A DNA stretch of 64,000 nucleotides from Marinobacter pelagius (GTDB taxonomy: Bacteria > Pseudomonadota > Gammaproteobacteria > Pseudomonadales > Oleiphilaceae). The position numbers and the translations under genes are program-made. The first letter of the stretch is position 1. Every line of letters begins with the position of its first letter. Below the pieces are notes generated by a model. It did not search any database and was not told where the DNA came from. It was given only the letters and a program-made list of their open reading frames with translations. The stretch spans positions 124,001 through 188,000 of the forward strand of contig NZ_QNRO01000003.1 in the NCBI RefSeq assembly GCF_003315345.1. Reading direction: 5' to 3'. Positions 5,746 through 19,066 of this stretch are shown here, in pieces.

Positions 5746-7647
5746 TCAGGCATTGATGAAGGAACGGTGAATGTCACGGCCATAACGCCGGATGATGTCC
5801 ATCTTGGCGGCGTGGAACGCGGCCACGCTCTCCGGCTCCTTCGACCGTGCCAGCTGGTGGCGGGCCAGTTCATCGGAAATCACGTCCATAAACAGCTCCG
5901 CCAGCAGCAGACGCGCGGAATCCCGGAAACGCCCGCGACCGTCCACGTACAGCTGCACGGTCGGTGCCTCGGTATTGATCAGGATCTTGCGCTCCTTCGG
6001 GCTGTATACCGCTCGCTCCAGCTCGTTGTGCAGGGCGCGGAAGTCATAGCCAATGAACATCGCCTCGCCGTGGTCACGGGATGCGGCCCGGTGATTGTGG
6101 CTGGGATGATGCTTGGGCCGATGGTGCCGGTGATGGGCGCCGTGGTCCGCGATCACTACCTCACACCAGGCCCAGTAATGCTGGCTTCGAACGGTAATCT
6201 CACCCCGGTCTCCGACGGAATCTCCGGTGATAGTCCATTCAATGCGATTGCGGTCGGTCAACTGGGACACCGGCACCTCCGTCGGTTTGGTATCCAGCTG
6301 AACCGAATCCGGGAAGCGGTAGCTGATGTGCAACACATCGTCCGGGGCAAAGCTGGCCGGTTTCACCAGCAAGGAGACATGAAACGGATGCCCCGCCTGC
6401 CGGTAATAGAACGGGGTGGTAAAGCGCAGGGCAGGCTCTTCAGGCTCCGGCTCCGATTCCGCCTGAGTATCACCCGCCGGCGGCAAGGAGATGCGCAGAT
6501 CCTGGATTGCGGCCCGGTTCATCCGCTCCAGCAGATGCTCGATCATGTGGTCGGTCCGACCCGATGCGGTCGCATGCTCCAGGTGGCGCAGTTGCTCCCG
6601 CTCTTCCTGTACCGCCGGGCGGAGATACTTGCTGACGGCCCGCCCGAACGCTGCCACAAACGGATCCTTGAGGTTCAGGCCGTCACGCTCGTCACTGATG
6701 ATAGCCAGGCCCTGCCCCAGCTTTTCAGCCAGGGCAGGACAATTCACCTCGCCGAACAGGTATTCCGTGCCCACCTGGTTCTCGAACTCGAACAACTGGC
6801 AATCGAGCACCGCGTTACCGGACAACACCAGCAGCCCGTTGGTGCGCTCGTCACCGTGCAGGGTCAGCTCGGCATTGAGCGCCCGCTTCAGGGTCAAGGT
6901 AAACGGGTAGCTCACCTGTTCGTAGACAAAACTGCACGGCTGCTGTGGCCCCAGCAGCACCCTGGATTCCGGTTCCAGGTAGTGGACCGGCCCCATCCGC
7001 TCCACTTCCTTACCGGCCTGACGGTGTACCAGCTCCACTCGCCGACGCCCGAGGATTTCCCGCAGGTAGATGTTGTGGGACAGGGAGTGCAAAACCGAAC
7101 GGTACTGGGAAATGTGGACCAGGGGATTGTCGATCACGATGGCCACCCGGGTACCATTGGCATCGGTGCCGAGGCGCTCGTAGTCGGTATCCTTCGCCTC
7201 ACGATCGCCTTCACCGTCGTCGTAGAGGTAGCCGCCATCCTCTCCCCGGAACAAATCGACGCGCGTGTAGCGGCCATTATGGAGGGTTTCCAGCCAGCCA
7301 TAACCGAGGCCATAGATCGCCTGTTTAAGACCACGACCGAAGAAGCCCCGGCCGGTTGCTTCACCATTCGCCAGGGGGCTATGGGCACCGCCATAGGTCA
7401 GGCTGGTCAGGGCCTGCTGCCAGGTCATGCCCTCGGCCTGGTCGGCAACTACCAGCATGGCGCCGTTCTGGTGGCGCTCATACTGGATGGTAATGCTGCC
7501 GGTCACCGCAACTCCGGCACGCTCGAGTCGGGAGTAACTGTCATCGCTGTTGGTGATCAGCTCCACCAGCGCCTTTTCCACCGACGCGAACCGGCGGGAA
7601 TCGATATCGATCACCCGTTGATCTACCGGAATTGCGGTAATGCCCAT
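5746..7647 (-). CDS. GHKL-type ATPase of unknown function with His-rich segment
   Basis: A 633-residue protein whose first 120 residues form an Hsp90/MutL/MORC-like ATP-binding domain. The N-box is 'ELITNSDDSY' (E29, N33, D36), the G1 box is a variant 'DQAEGM' around D69-G73, and a glycine-rich lid 'GRGFFGRGLKQA' lies at residues 99-110. The middle part resembles the transducer region that follows such domains. Near residues 510-540 is a histidine-rich run ('HRHHRPKHH') that could bind metal. I do not know its function; relatives act in protein remodelling, DNA repair or defence. GGGGGA precedes the ATG. It lies alone between ahpF and DUF3581. Confidence 0.7.
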   Translation of the reverse strand: MGITAIPVDQRVIDIDSRRFASVEKALVELITNSDDSYSRLERAGVAVTGSITIQYERHQNGAMLVVADQAEGMTWQQALTSLTYGGAHSPLANGEATGRGFFGRGLKQAIYGLGYGWLETLHNGRYTRVDLFRGEDGGYLYDDGEGDREAKDTDYERLGTDANGTRVAIVIDNPLVHISQYRSVLHSLSHNIYLREILGRRRVELVHRQAGKEVERMGPVHYLEPESRVLLGPQQPCSFVYEQVSYPFTLTLKRALNAELTLHGDERTNGLLVLSGNAVLDCQLFEFENQVGTEYLFGEVNCPALAEKLGQGLAIISDERDGLNLKDPFVAAFGRAVSKYLRPAVQEEREQLRHLEHATASGRTDHMIEHLLERMNRAAIQDLRISLPPAGDTQAESEPEPEEPALRFTTPFYYRQAGHPFHVSLLVKPASFAPDDVLHISYRFPDSVQLDTKPTEVPVSQLTDRNRIEWTITGDSVGDRGEITVRSQHYWAWCEVVIADHGAHHRHHRPKHHPSHNHRAASRDHGEAMFIGYDFRALHNELERAVYSPKERKILINTEAPTVQLYVDGRGRFRDSARLLLAELFMDVISDELARHQLARSKEPESVAAFHAAKMDIIRRYGRDIHRSFINA

Positions 7648-14743: not shown

Positions 14744-14773
14744 CAAAAAAAGAGCGGCCGTTATTGGCCGCTC
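14744..14773 (-). terminator. Terminator of the sigma/anti-sigma operon
   Basis: Stem GAGCGGCC/GGCCGCTC with a six-base loop (14752-14773), followed on the minus strand by a run of seven T. The stop codon of the anti-sigma gene lies in the loop, so translation ends inside the terminator hairpin. Confidence 0.8.
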
Positions 14774-15486
14774 CACTCTTTCCCGATCAGGGTTCTTTCC
14801 GCATCAGGGCCAATGGGCGGCCCTTCCATGAGTCGATTCAGCGTCTCATCCAGGACGCGACCTCCAGTCGCGGTCTGATAGGTCTCCGGTGAGGCGTTTA
14901 CCTCCACATCGACTCTCGCCACCTGTTGCCAGTCACCGGCACCGGTGCGGCAGGCAATCTGTTCGGAGGCATGGTCAGCCTTCTGTACCAGGTACTGCCG
15001 ACACCAGTCTCCGTCCTGGTTCCGGAAGGTCAGCCTCGGCGTCACGGTGGTTTCGTCAATGGCATGGGGCTCACCGCTCGGACGCGTCTCCAGGGCCTGT
15101 GCCACTTCCGCCCAGCCGGCCTCTTCGCCGGGGCCGGGCACGGCCAGCCACTGGGCGAGGGCAAACCCGGCAATTACGGCCGCGGCGACGACTTTCCCGG
15201 TGTGCTCCCGCACCCGGCGCCACCCGGGGAAGGCAATGACATTGTCCGGCCCGCCGCCGGCACCTGCGGACGGCTCATCCCCCAGCAGCCGGGTCACGGT
15301 TTCCGGCATAGGCCGCTCATCGATCGCGCCATAGCGGGCCTGCAGTTCGGCATCCACCGACGCCAGTTCCGCCAGACGATCGGCCAGAGCCGGGTCGGCG
15401 GCCAGCTGGTCACGCACCGCCTGCATCTCCGCCTCGGGCAGTTCATGGTCCAGGAAGGCAGACAGGGTCTCGTCGGTAATCTTCAT
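14761..15486 (-). CDS. Membrane-anchored anti-sigma factor
   Basis: A 241-residue single-pass protein. The N-terminal cytoplasmic part begins 'MKITDETLSAFLDHELPEAE', the usual opening of the anti-sigma domain that clamps an ECF sigma factor; no zinc-ligand motif of the HxxxCxxC type is seen. One hydrophobic helix at about residues 99-118 crosses the membrane, leaving a periplasmic domain of about 120 residues with two cysteines. Its ATG overlaps the sigma stop (ATGA), so the pair is translationally coupled. Release probably involves proteolysis or a periplasmic ligand; this is inference. Confidence 0.82.
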   Translation of the reverse strand: MKITDETLSAFLDHELPEAEMQAVRDQLAADPALADRLAELASVDAELQARYGAIDERPMPETVTRLLGDEPSAGAGGGPDNVIAFPGWRRVREHTGKVVAAAVIAGFALAQWLAVPGPGEEAGWAEVAQALETRPSGEPHAIDETTVTPRLTFRNQDGDWCRQYLVQKADHASEQIACRTGAGDWQQVARVDVEVNASPETYQTATGGRVLDETLNRLMEGPPIGPDAERTLIGKEWSGQ

Positions 15487-15974
15487 GATTCGGTCCTCAT
15501 ACTTACGGGTGCCAGCGCCTCGCTCAATGCCGATCGTGCCCGGGCGAGCCGGCTCATCACCGTACCCCTGGGTACCGACAGGATCTCGGCCACCGCCTGA
15601 TAAGACAGACCCTGTATGGCCACCAGGGAAATGATCTGGCGCTGATCTTCCGGCAGTCGGGCCATGGCCGCATCCACCCGGTTCCATTCGATTTTCCGGG
15701 TGGTCTGACGTTCGCCGTCAACAACCTGGCCGTCGGTCAGCTCAGGCTGCTCCGCCGCCTCCCGGCGAACCTTTCGGGCCCGGCATTCGTCTATCCAGAC
15801 ATTCCGGCAGACCCGGAACGACCACTTGGTCAGGTCCGCGTCCCGTGGTATGTCCCGGGCCAGCAACCGTTCCACCGTATTCTGGAGTAGGTCGTCGGCA
15901 TCGGGCATGGAGCCGGTGAGCGAGTAGGCAAAGCGTCTGAGCCTGGGCAATAGTTCGGTGATTTCCTGTTGCAT
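15483..15974 (-). CDS. ECF-type RNA polymerase sigma factor
   Basis: A 163-residue ECF sigma factor with region 2 (about residues 8-75, including 'DADDLLQNTVERLLAR' and 'FRVCRNVWIDECR') and region 4 (about 100-155, with 'LSYQAVAEILSVPRGTVMSRL'). It is followed by its anti-sigma gene with a four-base overlap. A promoter of the form GGAAT-N15-TCGTT lies 29 bases before its ATG. The same motif precedes the divergent protease gene and, with TCGTC, the Ala-rich gene, which indicates autoregulation and a small local regulon. Confidence 0.9.
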   Translation of the reverse strand: MQQEITELLPRLRRFAYSLTGSMPDADDLLQNTVERLLARDIPRDADLTKWSFRVCRNVWIDECRARKVRREAAEQPELTDGQVVDGERQTTRKIEWNRVDAAMARLPEDQRQIISLVAIQGLSYQAVAEILSVPRGTVMSRLARARSALSEALAPVSMRTES

Positions 15975-16002
15975 AGCGCTCTTTGCTGATACGTGTTAAC
16001 AG

Positions 16003-16030
16003 TACAACGAGCCAGAAACCGTTTTATTCC
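16003..16030 (-). promoter_or_regulatory. ECF promoter of the sigma/anti-sigma operon
   Basis: Minus strand: GGAAT at 16030-16026, fifteen bases, then TCGTTGTA ending at 16003. Spacing and sequence match the divergent promoter at 16041-16068 exactly in form. The start codon follows 29 bases later. Assignment to the adjacent sigma factor is by analogy with autoregulated ECF systems. Confidence 0.7.
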
Positions 16031-16040
16031 ATCGAAGGGC

Positions 16041-16068
16041 GGAATTTTTCCCCGACCCGGTCGTTATA
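16041..16068 (+). promoter_or_regulatory. ECF promoter of the S8 protease gene
   Basis: Plus strand: GGAAT at 16041-16045, fifteen bases, then TCGTTATA at 16061-16068. Transcription should begin near 16075. That makes the upstream ATG at 16073 an unlikely start and favours the ATG at 16103. The motif is back-to-back with the sigma-operon promoter, ten bases apart. Confidence 0.72.
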
Positions 16069-16102
16069 TCGAATGAAACACTTCCGAATCTGGACAGACA
16101 CG

Positions 16103-17437
16103 ATGAAGCACTTCCGAAAGATCCATTGGCTCCCCGCGCTCGCCCTGGCCTCGCTCGCCACCCCGGTGCTGGCGCTGGGTACCGGCAGCGTGCTGGACGG
16201 GGCGGCCGGGCCCGTAACCCGACAGGTGGAACAGAGCGCAGAACGTCTGGTGGAGCGGAGGATGGCCCGGCAGGTCGAGGAGCGGGTAGAAACCGTGTCC
16301 GAATCCTTCCGTAACCCGCTTGAAAACCTGCCCGCGGAGCTTCCTGTCCTGACGAAACAGGGCGAGGTGGCGTTCACCGAGGTTGCCGTCGAAGATGGCG
16401 GGCGTGCGGTGGAACGCCAGTGGCTGCTCACCGGCACGGACGAGGAAATCGCGCGACTCGACCAACCGGGCATTACGCTGCTCAAGCGTCAGGAACTGGC
16501 GGGACTGGGCCTGAACCTTGTCCGCTTCCGGGTATCACCGGAGCTGGACTCGCGGCAAGCACTGCAAGCAATCCTGCCAAAGCTTGTGGACCGGCTGGAC
16601 CGTAACCATATCTACAGCCCCCAGGCTGACGAACCGCCGCCGGAGCCGCAGGCGCGGTCACCCCGGTGGCAGAGCCTGTGCTCTTCCCCGGTGCGGGTCG
16701 GTATGGTGGATACCTCAATTGCCACCGGGCATCCTTCATTCCGGCAGGCCCGCGTCGTGCAGTCCCGTTTCCTGGACGTCGACGGAGCGAAAGGCCAGCT
16801 CTCGGAGCCACGCGCCCACGGGACCGCCGTCGCAAGCCTGATGGTGGGCGACCTCGGCAATGACTCGCCGGCCCGGCTTCCGAGCGCTACGCTGTTCAAC
16901 GCGTCGGTGTTCTATGACCGGAACCGGAACCTGTCCGGCGCCACCCTGGGGCATCTCCTGGAGGGCCTGAACTGGCTGTCGGAGCAGGATATTTCCGTCC
17001 TGAACATCAGCCTGACGGGGCCGGATAACCGGGTACTGGCGACGGTTATCCGCAACCTGCTGGATCGTGGCCTTGTGCTGGTGGCGGCGGTCGGCAACCA
17101 GGGCCCGGCGGCGCCGCCGCTGTATCCGGCAGCCTATCCCGGGGTTGTCGGTGTTACCGCGGTGGACGACTCGAATGAGCTCTATCGGTGGGCCAATCGT
17201 GGCGAGCAGGTGATGTTTGCGGCCCGGGGGGTATCGGTTCCGGTCGCCGCTCCGGAGGGCGGCCGGGTCTCTGACAGCGGCACTTCCCTGGCGGCACCGG
17301 TGGTCACGGCGGCCCTGGCCTGCCGGCTCCGTGAGGCTTCTGCCGAGCAGGCAATCGAGGCACTTATCGGGACAGCCCGGGATCTTGGCGAACCTGGCCG
17401 TGACCGGAGTTTCGGCCACGGCCTGCTGGATTACTGA
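16103..17437 (+). CDS. Secreted subtilisin-like (S8) serine protease
   Basis: From the ATG at 16103 the protein has 444 residues: a signal peptide ('LPALALASLATPVLALG'), an N-terminal region of about 170 residues rich in Arg/Glu that may be a propeptide, and a subtilase domain. The triad is Asp in 'GMVDTSIATGHP', His in 'AHGTAVASLMVG' and Ser in 'SDSGTSLAAPV', with the oxyanion Asn in 'AAVGNQGP'. The frame is open further upstream, and an ATG at 16073 starts a near-duplicate 'MKHFR', but the ECF promoter places transcription start between the two. It should act in the periplasm or outside the cell. It is divergent from the sigma/anti-sigma operon and could cleave the anti-sigma factor or damaged envelope proteins. 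Confidence 0.85.
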   Translation: MKHFRKIHWLPALALASLATPVLALGTGSVLDGAAGPVTRQVEQSAERLVERRMARQVEERVETVSESFRNPLENLPAELPVLTKQGEVAFTEVAVEDGGRAVERQWLLTGTDEEIARLDQPGITLLKRQELAGLGLNLVRFRVSPELDSRQALQAILPKLVDRLDRNHIYSPQADEPPPEPQARSPRWQSLCSSPVRVGMVDTSIATGHPSFRQARVVQSRFLDVDGAKGQLSEPRAHGTAVASLMVGDLGNDSPARLPSATLFNASVFYDRNRNLSGATLGHLLEGLNWLSEQDISVLNISLTGPDNRVLATVIRNLLDRGLVLVAAVGNQGPAAPPLYPAAYPGVVGVTAVDDSNELYRWANRGEQVMFAARGVSVPVAAPEGGRVSDSGTSLAAPVVTAALACRLREASAEQAIEALIGTARDLGEPGRDRSFGHGLLDY

Positions 17438-17447
17438 GCCTTCCCGG

Positions 17448-18416
17448 TCAGAAACCGGCCCGCAGGGTGACGCCGGCCACGGTCTTGTCATAGTCGGCCG
17501 AGTCCACGTTGGAGGTATAGTTACCGTAGGAAATGCTGGGCTCAACACTGACCACCTCGGTCAGGCCGATGCGCCAACCCGCCTCCAGGATCCGGGCCTG
17601 ATCCACGCGCTGGCTGGAACTGCGCTCGGTAAGGTCACCAGTGAGCGGATCCGTCAGCAACGGATCGCTGCTGGTGATGGTCACCGCCTCGTATTCCCGG
17701 TCCTCGAAGCGCCAGCCCAGGCGGAACCGGTTGTCCTCGCCGGCCAACGTAAACTTGTGCACCAGGCTGACGCGGACCCGGATCAGGCGGTTGTCATAGG
17801 CATCAGCCTCGGCGTCCTCGCGGTCGCCGTCCAACCCAACCAGTAAATGGCTTCGCGCTTCGTTGAAAAAGAAAAACGAGTCCAGGCTGGCGCCTTTGAT
17901 GTCCGAGTCCCGGGCGCTGCTGTCCTCGAAGTCCTTGGATTTGTCCTGCACGCTCGCCAGCAGGTAGACATCGTCACCCACCAGACGCCCCAGATAGACA
18001 CTCGCCCGCCGATAATCCAGGAAAGGGTCGGAACCCAGTGTGGCATGGGAGAAATGGTAGCTCGCCCCGACAGTGACCGGATCGAAGTCGTAACTGATGT
18101 CGGCAGACGCCAGGTGGATGTCCTGATCAAACCGGTCAAAAGTCTGGTACCGGCGACCGGACACCGAATACCCCAGAGTGACATTCAGTCGTTCTGCCGG
18201 CTTGAGGATACCTTCCAGACCGGCATCGAACACCCAGGCCTCGTCACTCTCGCCGGAAGAGGCATTCAGTTCGTCCACGGTCAGGTTGCTGTCGTGCTCA
18301 TAGCCGCCTTCCAGATGGCCGTTCAGTTCAGCCTTGTCCGCCGCCTCGACCACCAGAACCGGAGACATCAGTCCCACTGCCAGGGACAGGGTGGAGATTC
18401 GCTGTATCAAACGCAT
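17448..18416 (-). CDS. Putative outer-membrane beta-barrel protein
   Basis: A 322-residue protein with a signal peptide ending in 'VVEAADK', many alternating amphipathic strands and a C-terminal phenylalanine ('TLRAGF'), the usual signal for insertion by the BAM complex. The general pattern resembles surface beta-barrel proteins with no assigned family. It lies downstream of the Ala-rich gene on the same strand but is separated from it by a strong terminator, so it may be transcribed by readthrough or from an unseen promoter. It converges with the S8 protease gene, 10 bases apart. Confidence 0.7.
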   Translation of the reverse strand: MRLIQRISTLSLAVGLMSPVLVVEAADKAELNGHLEGGYEHDSNLTVDELNASSGESDEAWVFDAGLEGILKPAERLNVTLGYSVSGRRYQTFDRFDQDIHLASADISYDFDPVTVGASYHFSHATLGSDPFLDYRRASVYLGRLVGDDVYLLASVQDKSKDFEDSSARDSDIKGASLDSFFFFNEARSHLLVGLDGDREDAEADAYDNRLIRVRVSLVHKFTLAGEDNRFRLGWRFEDREYEAVTITSSDPLLTDPLTGDLTERSSSQRVDQARILEAGWRIGLTEVVSVEPSISYGNYTSNVDSADYDKTVAGVTLRAGF

Positions 18417-18434
18417 ATCGGCTCCTCTCTGTCA

Positions 18435-18464
18435 GAAAAAAGCCGGGCCTGAAACGGCCCGGCT
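18435..18464 (-). terminator. Terminator after the Ala-rich protein gene
   Basis: Stem AGCCGGGCC/GGCCCGGCT with a six-base loop, followed on the minus strand by TTTTTT. It lies 18 bases past the Ala-rich gene stop and 18 bases before the beta-barrel start, so it would attenuate any joint transcript. Confidence 0.82.
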
Positions 18465-18481
18465 GCTCTCGGATCACGCCT

Positions 18482-18994
18482 TTACAACAGGCCGCCGCCA
18501 GCGGAACCCTGCACCGTACCTTTCACGGTGTTACGGACTTCGCTTTTGACGCTATCGGAGACTGACGTGCCGATCTGCTGATTGGTTTCAGCCTGGATTT
18601 CGGCATTTCGGGCCTTGTTCATGCGTTCGCCGGCGGCTTCACGCTGCTCGGCGGCAGTGTCGGTTGCCGCATCCGCTGTAGCATTGGCGGTGCCACGAAC
18701 CTTCTGACCCGCCTCGACACCGGCACGGACGGCGGTGTTGGCCTTCTGGCGCGCCTCGTTGCTGGCCGCCTGACCCTGTTCGGACGCCTCGTCCCGAACA
18801 GCCTGGCCGTTGACACTGCCCTCGGCAGAGGCAGAACCACTGCCCTGGGCAGAAACACCATTCTGGGCGCTGGCCTCAGCGCTCATGCTGGTGTCGGCCT
18901 GCATATCGGCATTGGCAGCACCGGAGCCTTCGGCCGCAAACGCAGCGGTGGAAAGGATGGAACAGATTGCGAGGGTCAGTACCTGCTTTTTCAT
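18482..18994 (-). CDS. Secreted Ala/Ser/Glu-rich low-complexity protein
   Basis: A 170-residue protein with a clear signal peptide ('LAICSILSTAAFAAEG'). The mature part is very rich in Ala, Ser, Gly, Glu and Gln, with heptad-like stretches ('ASNEARQKANTAVRAGVEAG') that suggest an extended, helical or disordered chain, and a glycine-rich end. I do not recognise a family. AGGAGG precedes the ATG. A GGAAT-N15-TCGTC promoter lies 47-72 bases upstream of the start, so it probably belongs to the adjacent ECF regulon. A role as an envelope or surface stress protein is a guess. Confidence 0.75.
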   Translation of the reverse strand: MKKQVLTLAICSILSTAAFAAEGSGAANADMQADTSMSAEASAQNGVSAQGSGSASAEGSVNGQAVRDEASEQGQAASNEARQKANTAVRAGVEAGQKVRGTANATADAATDTAAEQREAAGERMNKARNAEIQAETNQQIGTSVSDSVKSEVRNTVKGTVQGSAGGGLL

Positions 18995-19040
18995 GATTTC
19001 GTCCTCCTGTTTTACCCTTTTCGGGTGGCTTTCATCAGGA

Positions 19041-19066
19041 GGACGATTCAGCGAAGAATTTATTCC
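19041..19066 (-). promoter_or_regulatory. Third ECF-type promoter, before the Ala-rich gene
   Basis: Minus strand: GGAAT at 19066-19062, fifteen bases, TCGTC at 19046-19042. The -35 element and spacing are identical to the two promoters around 16.0 kb; the -10 differs only in its last base. It overlaps the 3' end of the small gene upstream. Confidence 0.65.

What the first reader, a model, noticed from the sequence alone, without database searches (positions are those of the whole stretch)
14744..19066. A local ECF regulon: three matching promoters, protease and secreted protein
GGAAT-N15-TCGTT occurs divergently before the sigma/anti-sigma operon and the S8 protease gene, and GGAAT-N15-TCGTC before the Ala-rich secreted protein. 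The exact 15-base spacing in all three is unlikely to be chance. The system joins a sigma factor, its membrane anti-sigma factor, a secreted protease and a surface-type protein, and looks like an undescribed envelope response.
Basis: partly seen in the sequence, partly recalled or inferred. Interest (0 to 1): 0.68.

Follow-up and report, generated by a model that had tools for sequence, protein, structure and literature searches.

The report
Self-contained ECF26 secreted-protein regulon
A Marinobacter genome carries a compact five-gene cassette in which one sigma factor of a known group appears to switch on itself, a secreted protease, and a secreted repeat protein with a barrel protein, through one conserved promoter motif.

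Summary
GGAAT-N15-TCGTY occurs three times in the window, all in this locus. In 38 other Marinobacter loci, 111 of 115 GGAAT-N16-CGTY sites lie in the same three promoters: sigma 37/38, S8 protease 38/38, Ala-rich gene 36/36. The OMP is in all 40 sigma-bearing genomes of the genus and in 1 of the 84 others. No further target was found.

The kind is not undescribed. GGAAT/CGTC is the published ECF26 consensus, and a divergent serine protease induced by ECF26 sigma RpoE6 is published for Sinorhizobium meliloti.

Not found in my paper searches: the barrel plus a secreted protein with a four-residue hydrophobic period, in one clade; a small secreted low-complexity protein behind an ECF26-type motif in up to 37 of 80 relative loci; and a cysteine pair in the anti-sigma's periplasmic part that goes with the S8 protease (66 of 67 loci with S8, 3 of 13 without), which suggests a disulfide switch. 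Signal and output remain inferred.

The parts
14751..14774 (-). terminator-like hairpin with T tail at the end of the anti-sigma gene
   Evidence: 3 such sites in the region, shuffles give mean 3.8, so the scan alone is not evidence
14761..15495 (-). anti-sigma factor gene (244 aa); N-terminal sigma-binding type region, one hydrophobic stretch near residues 98-120, periplasmic part with Cys165 and Cys182
   Evidence: (sub-threshold), homologues in 41 of 124 genomes, Cys pair, model
15483..15974 (-). ECF sigma factor gene (163 aa), ECF26-like
16006..16030 (-). promoter motif of the sigma/anti-sigma operon, GGAAT-N15-TCGTT
   Evidence: same place in 37 of 38 relatives
16041..16065 (+). promoter motif of the S8 gene, GGAAT-N15-TCGTT
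   Evidence: same place in 38 of 38 relatives
16103..17437 (+). secreted S8 (subtilisin-type) protease gene; Asp, His, Ser motifs present
   Evidence: start chosen by signal-peptide-like N-terminus and distance from the motif
17448..18416 (-). outer-membrane barrel protein (OMP) gene, modelled with 14 strands; no motif of its own
18441..18464 (-). terminator-like hairpin with T tail between the Ala-rich and OMP genes
   Evidence: a comparable hairpin with T tail in 32 of 35 relatives examined
18482..18994 (-). Ala-rich secreted protein gene (170 aa) with a C-terminal tail of V/I/L every fourth residue
19042..19066 (-). promoter motif of the Ala-rich (and by read-through OMP) gene, GGAAT-N15-TCGTC
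   Evidence: same place in 36 of 36 relatives

Best explanation
This is a self-contained regulon of an ECF26-type sigma factor. At rest the membrane anti-sigma holds the sigma factor; a periplasmic signal releases it. RNA polymerase with the sigma factor then reads three promoters GGAAT-N16-CGTY: its own operon (which also renews the anti-sigma), the divergent S8 protease gene, and the Ala-rich secreted protein gene, with read-through past a hairpin into the OMP gene, so that the secreted protein is made in excess over its barrel partner. The output is a secreted repeat protein plus a subtilisin that acts on exported protein at the cell surface. Shown by comparison: the three promoters, the gene set, its joint presence and absence. 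Inferred from S. meliloti homologues: that the sigma factor drives these promoters. Inferred from sequence and models only: read-through, the disulfide switch in the anti-sigma, and that protease, barrel and repeat protein work together.
For: 111 of 115 motif sites in 38 relatives lie in the three promoters, with the spacing fixed while the spacer sequence varies. Sigma in 40, anti-sigma in 40 plus a relic, OMP in 40 plus one of 124 genomes, the same 40. Sigma-bearing genomes have on average 2.65 sites of a stringent form against 0.98 in the others, and the outside sites looked at are mostly in coding frames. S. meliloti RpoE6 induces the homologous protease gene (log2 4.7), and the published promoter maps to the homologous place without mismatch. 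A hairpin with T tail stands between Ala and OMP in 32 of 35 relatives.
Against: No expression data for any Marinobacter. S. meliloti rpoE6's own mapped promoter has RpoD/RpoH-like motifs, not this one, so self-activation is not shown for the best-studied relative. G008 keeps Ala and OMP with the motif but has lost sigma, anti-sigma and S8. The hairpin could end transcription fully and OMP could have a promoter of another kind; the terminator scan in the window is not above shuffles. The joint function of OMP, S8 and repeat protein rests on co-occurrence only.
Confidence: 0.75

Rival explanations
1. The S8 protease is the site-1 protease of the anti-sigma: the sigma factor raises its own activator and so makes a self-sustaining envelope-stress switch.
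For: S8 is next to the pair in 67 of 80 relative loci and is co-regulated. The cysteine-bearing anti-sigma type is found in 66 of 67 loci with S8 and 3 of 13 without, as a protease-substrate link would give, though common descent gives it too.
Against: A first-cleaving protease is usually present before the signal (established knowledge of DegS-type systems), whereas this one is a target gene. Loci with S8 also tend to carry a secreted low-complexity protein behind the motif (35 of 67 against 2 of 13), an alternative substrate.
Confidence: 0.2
2. The sigma factor serves a wider regulon and the cassette is only its local part.
Against: With a more stringent pattern, 8 of 10 outside sites lie in frames of 236 codons or more and 2 have no ORF of 80 codons within 250 nt; the excess over sigma-free genomes is about 1.7 sites, close to the two cassette sites of that form. 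Weaker sites were not scanned.
Confidence: 0.15
3. The five genes are neighbours by chance and only some belong together.
For: OMP has no motif; the OMP and the period-4 protein are largely limited to one clade of the sigma relatives.
Against: Same order in 38 loci with changing outer neighbours, joint presence in 124 genomes, and a deletion scar in G089 that runs from the Ala promoter into the anti-sigma gene.
Confidence: 0.03

Closest known systems
S. meliloti RpoE6-EcfR6-SMa0142 (group ECF26 with divergent serine protease)
   Same: Sigma 42% identical over 151 aa, S8 36% over 346 aa; same divergent layout; GGAATA/CGTT promoter before the protease gene, induced by RpoE6; a small secreted low-complexity protein behind a motif.
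   Different: No OMP found there; (SSN)n instead of a period-4 Ala-rich protein; anti-sigma has its own promoter inside rpoE6; rpoE6's own promoter is of another type.
S. meliloti RpoE1/RpoE4 and Starkeya SigE (ECF26, sulfite response)
   Same: Published consensus GGAAT/CGTC (PMC6527743, passages); RpoE1 operon also holds a secreted protein (PMC3511301, passages).
   Different: Their targets are sulfite oxidation genes; no such genes in this cassette.
CymA and OmpG (14-strand monomeric porins)
   Same: Model of the OMP fits CymA with Z 22.9, 3.3 A over 274 residues, and OmpG with Z about 21.
   Different: 8-11% identity; a shared fold says nothing of function.
E. coli RpoE-RseA-DegS (recalled; one passage in PMC8103513)
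   Same: Sigma, membrane anti-sigma, serine protease.
   Different: DegS is an HtrA-type sensor protease; here an S8 protease that is itself a target, and no PDZ domain was found by Pfam.

Membership tests
ECF26 sigma group | Sigma factor related to ECF26 members | tested here: met
   42% identity to RpoE6; in the tree 6 of 7 own ECFs included fall apart from the window sigma and the relatives (99/98), the seventh sits on a very long branch; long branches make details unsure. The official ECF group models were not available.
ECF26 sigma group | Promoter -35 GGAAT(A), -10 CGTC/CGTT | tested here: met
   consensus from PMC6527743 and PMC6180224
ECF26 sigma group | Membrane anti-sigma downstream in the same operon (COG5662 type in the literature) | tested here: met
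   Adjacent, overlapping ORF; homologous to anti-sigmas beside the relatives, 67 of 80 at E<1e-8. COG membership itself was not tested.
Protease-linked ECF26 (RpoE6-like) | Divergent S8 protease gene with its own motif | tested here: met
   in relatives 53 of 80 divergent and adjacent, 36 of these 53 with an S8-directed motif
Sulfite-regulator ECF26 (RpoE1/RpoE4/SigE-like) | Sulfite oxidation genes as targets | tested here: not met
   None among the genes of the cassette
RpoE/DegS-type envelope stress response | Protease that cleaves the anti-sigma on a signal | not testable with these tools
   needs a cleavage assay
CymA/OmpG-type porin | 14-strand monomeric barrel fold | tested here: met
   model with 14 strands, mean pLDDT 85, Z 22.9 to CymA
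CymA/OmpG-type porin | Sequence kinship and channel function | tested here: inconclusive
   8% identity, no Pfam hit; function not tested

The most novel reading that the evidence does not exclude
The anti-sigmas of protease-linked ECF26 systems are periplasmic thiol/disulfide sensors. Cys165 and Cys182 are both present in 105 of 106 homologues and lie on the two strands of one predicted hairpin (164-171, 176-183), at positions that should face each other. Opening of that disulfide by sulfite, another nucleophile or a reductant would free the sigma factor. In the marine branch the response would be to coat the cell with a secreted period-4 repeat protein that the barrel exports or anchors and the subtilisin trims.
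Probability: 0.25. Interest if true: 0.7.

Novelty: new variant of a known kind. Interest (0 to 1): 0.5.

Why it matters
Apart from the sulfite regulators, ECF26 members lack a known role: PMC6180224 says that microarrays failed to define one for RpoE6. A nearly closed five-gene version, present in 39 of 124 genomes of one genus and absent from most of the rest, is a small model. The conserved cysteine pair names a class of signal to test, and the recurring secreted protein suggests that the common output of protease-linked ECF26 systems is a secreted low-complexity protein.

Tried and rejected
RNA switch in the Ala-rich leader: bases after the -10 complement the Shine-Dalgarno region. My bracket string was one column off (51.9% of cells paired); the tool's +1 slide, the register I meant, has 94.7% paired and 0 two-sided changes, so no covariation. 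In S. meliloti the two ECF26 starts printed in lower case (SMa0142, SMc04049) lie 9 and 10 nt after CGTY, so most of the first arm would not be in the RNA. Not claimed.

Wider regulon: see the rival explanation. Of 14 outside sites fetched from relatives, 11 lie in frames of 239 codons or more, 2 are relics of the cassette (G056, G089), 1 (L198) lies in no long frame and has no ORF after it. A weight-matrix scan of the genome was not possible.

Defence system: PADLOC gave only subtilase and partial IetS hits for S8, nothing for the OMP or Ala-rich protein.

Anti-sigma fold: Foldseek found nothing at E <= 0.001 and the sequence profile found no PDB chain below E 0.05. No conclusion.

Universal cysteine pair in all relatives: not so. 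Of 11 weaker anti-sigma hits left out, 3 have the pair, 7 lack it and 1 is cut by a contig end; 2 of the 80 loci had no hit. The pair goes with S8 instead; L115, the one S8 locus without it, has a split frame.

Azospirillum RpoE6 (PMC12826043, passages) bears the same name, but its passages show a small 98-aa anti-sigma and flagellar targets. SMa0142 overexpression gave no fixation defect in a screen (PMC8175422, passage).

Papers: searches listed none that I could see to describe the OMP/secreted-protein cassette or the cysteine pair. Of PMC6180224 I read sections 6 and 7; of PMC3511301, PMC6527743, PMC8999054, PMC10880074, PMC7406223, PMC8103513, PMC12826043 and PMC8175422 passages only. The 2021 ECF reclassification paper is not held, so its group descriptions are unseen.

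The secreted-protein screen is a crude hydrophobicity and entropy rule; by eye some hits (L099, L117, L139, L150) look spurious, and genes with unusual starts are missed.
Full report
WHAT WAS CLAIMED AND CHECKED. GGAAT-N15-TCGTY occurs three times in the window: before sigma/anti-sigma, before the divergent S8 gene and before the Ala-rich gene; 0 of 100 shuffles reached three. The whole genome has 23 matches. Pfam and NCBIfam confirm an ECF sigma factor and an S8 peptidase. The anti-sigma has only sub-threshold hits; the OMP and Ala-rich proteins have no Pfam hit.

FOOTPRINT. Of 124 genomes of the genus, 40 have the sigma factor at E <= 1e-20. Three of these loci reappear under Marinobacter names. 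One of the 40, G014, has only a distant second system and G026 has both, so 39 have the cassette type. I fetched 40 loci: 38 of the cassette type (the window is the 39th) and the 2 second systems. All 38 have anti-sigma and S8, 37 the OMP, 36 the Ala-rich gene; the misses are L069 (no Ala) and L070 (neither), both on short contigs, and L031 shows Ala and OMP only in part because of a run of N. GGAAT-N16-CGTY stands before sigma in 37 of 38 (L031 has one changed base), before S8 in 38 of 38, before Ala in 36 of 36; with C or T required before CGTY the counts are 37, 32 and 32. The 38 loci hold 115 such sites in 1,202,100 bases counting both strands, and 111 are these promoters. None of the 39 OMP genes listed has the motif in the 110 bases before it, though for L031, L068 and L069 the true upstream was not visible. 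Between the Ala and OMP genes a perfect stem of 7 or more with a T tail is found in 32 of 35 loci examined; not in L055, L058, L059.

THE UNIT. The order is anti-sigma and sigma (-), S8 (+), OMP (-), Ala (-), with different outer neighbours. The OMP is in 41 of 124 genomes: the 40 with sigma, plus G008. The anti-sigma is in 41: the same 40, plus a fragment in G089. G008 keeps Ala and OMP with the motif beside the bet genes but has no sigma, anti-sigma or S8 there. G089 keeps the Ala promoter directly followed by anti-sigma residues 189-237; G056 keeps only the promoter, near the bet genes. So part of the patchy distribution is loss, in G089 as a block.

LOCALITY. With GGAATAA-N13-YCGTY the 40 sigma-bearing genomes average 2.65 sites and the 84 others 0.98 (the 84 include G008, G056 and G089). 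In the own genome GGAATWW-N13-YCGTY has 13 matches; 8 of the 10 outside the cassette lie in frames of 236 codons or more and 2 have no ORF of 80 codons within 250 nt.

KINSHIP. The 80 best named relatives (of 570 confirmed) are mostly Gamma- and Alphaproteobacteria. S8 is in the locus in 67 of 80, divergent and adjacent in 53 of 80; of these 53, 31 have a sigma-directed and 36 an S8-directed motif, 46 either; four scrambled patterns gave 0 or 1. Published work calls this ECF26: consensus GGAAT/CGTC (PMC6527743, passages); a divergent serine protease 'widely conserved' and induced by RpoE6 (PMC6180224, sections 6 and 7). The published upstream sequences of SMa0142, ecfR6, SMa0148 and rpoE6 are found without mismatch in an S. 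meliloti pSymA record; SMa0139 is not (best 7 mismatches). The rpoE6 one is not of this motif type. In the sigma tree the window groups with the relatives and apart from 6 of 7 own ECFs; long branches make details unsure.

WHAT SEEMS NEW. First, the OMP: 15 of 17 named loci of one supported clade (99/93) have it, 4 of the 15 (L082, L084, L085, L088) in other arrangements; outside that clade 1 of 63 has it. The Marinobacter second systems L064/L065 have one too. It is modelled as a 14-strand barrel, nearest to CymA and OmpG in fold. Second, the secreted protein: 13 of these 17 have one behind a motif. In 12 of 14 tested (window and these 13) the tail has V/I/L every fourth residue beyond shuffles (P <= 0.007); L084 and L085 do not. 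In the genus P < 0.01 holds for 31 of 35. Across the 80 loci, 37 have a secreted-like low-complexity ORF behind a motif, against 0 to 2 loci for nine control patterns, which however have far fewer sites (3 to 24 against 221); 35 of 67 loci with S8 and 2 of 13 without. In S. meliloti such an (SSN)n gene with its own motif lies where the record annotates a hypothetical protein on the other strand. Third, the anti-sigma: both cysteines in 105 of 106 homologues chosen at E < 1e-8, the exception being a split frame. They stay invariant in 41 aligned sequences down to 23% identity. Among the 80 named loci the pair is in 66 of 67 with S8 and in 3 of 13 without. The model puts them on two strands of one hairpin; the distance could not be measured.

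READING. I hold the circuit as likely and the joint surface function as unproven. The disulfide switch is a bold, testable reading, suggested by the sulfite response of RpoE1/RpoE4 (PMC3511301, abstract and passages). Against sulfite for this branch: the same paper says that preliminary data show no induction of rpoE6 by sulfite-generating compounds.

VERDICT. A real, conserved and compact regulon: a known group of sigma factor with a new accessory set. Interest 0.5.

Noticed in passing
L164:6322-6755 (S. meliloti pSymA, CP073679.1): A secreted (SSN)n repeat protein gene with its own ECF26-type motif lies on the strand opposite to the annotated hypothetical protein (6305-6694, -).
   Followed up: partly
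L186:4673-4873; L185:8285; L165:8672-10288: Remains of the cassette: a deletion scar (G089), a lone promoter (G056), and an Ala-OMP pair without sigma, anti-sigma and S8 (G008).
   Followed up: yes
L064, L065: A second, distant system in two Marinobacter genomes with sigma, anti-sigma and OMP in one row and S8 convergent; motif with one more base of spacing before sigma.
   Followed up: partly
L071-L150, about 330-520 bases after the start of the sigma match: A motif pointing at the anti-sigma gene inside the 3' part of the sigma gene in 21 of 80 named loci, 0 of 17 of the OMP clade; four scrambled patterns gave 0, 0, 1, 0.
   Followed up: partly
L164:6945-7658 and similar genes in L095, L098, L103, L121, L122, L128, L137: A DUF6065 protein (SMa0148 in S. 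meliloti, strongest RpoE6 target in Table 1 of PMC6180224) recurs behind the motif in rhizobial loci (Pfam run on the S. meliloti one only).
   Followed up: no
18995-19045 (-): Bases after the -10 of the Ala promoter are complementary to the Shine-Dalgarno region and conserved in 17 aligned loci, without covariation.
   Followed up: partly
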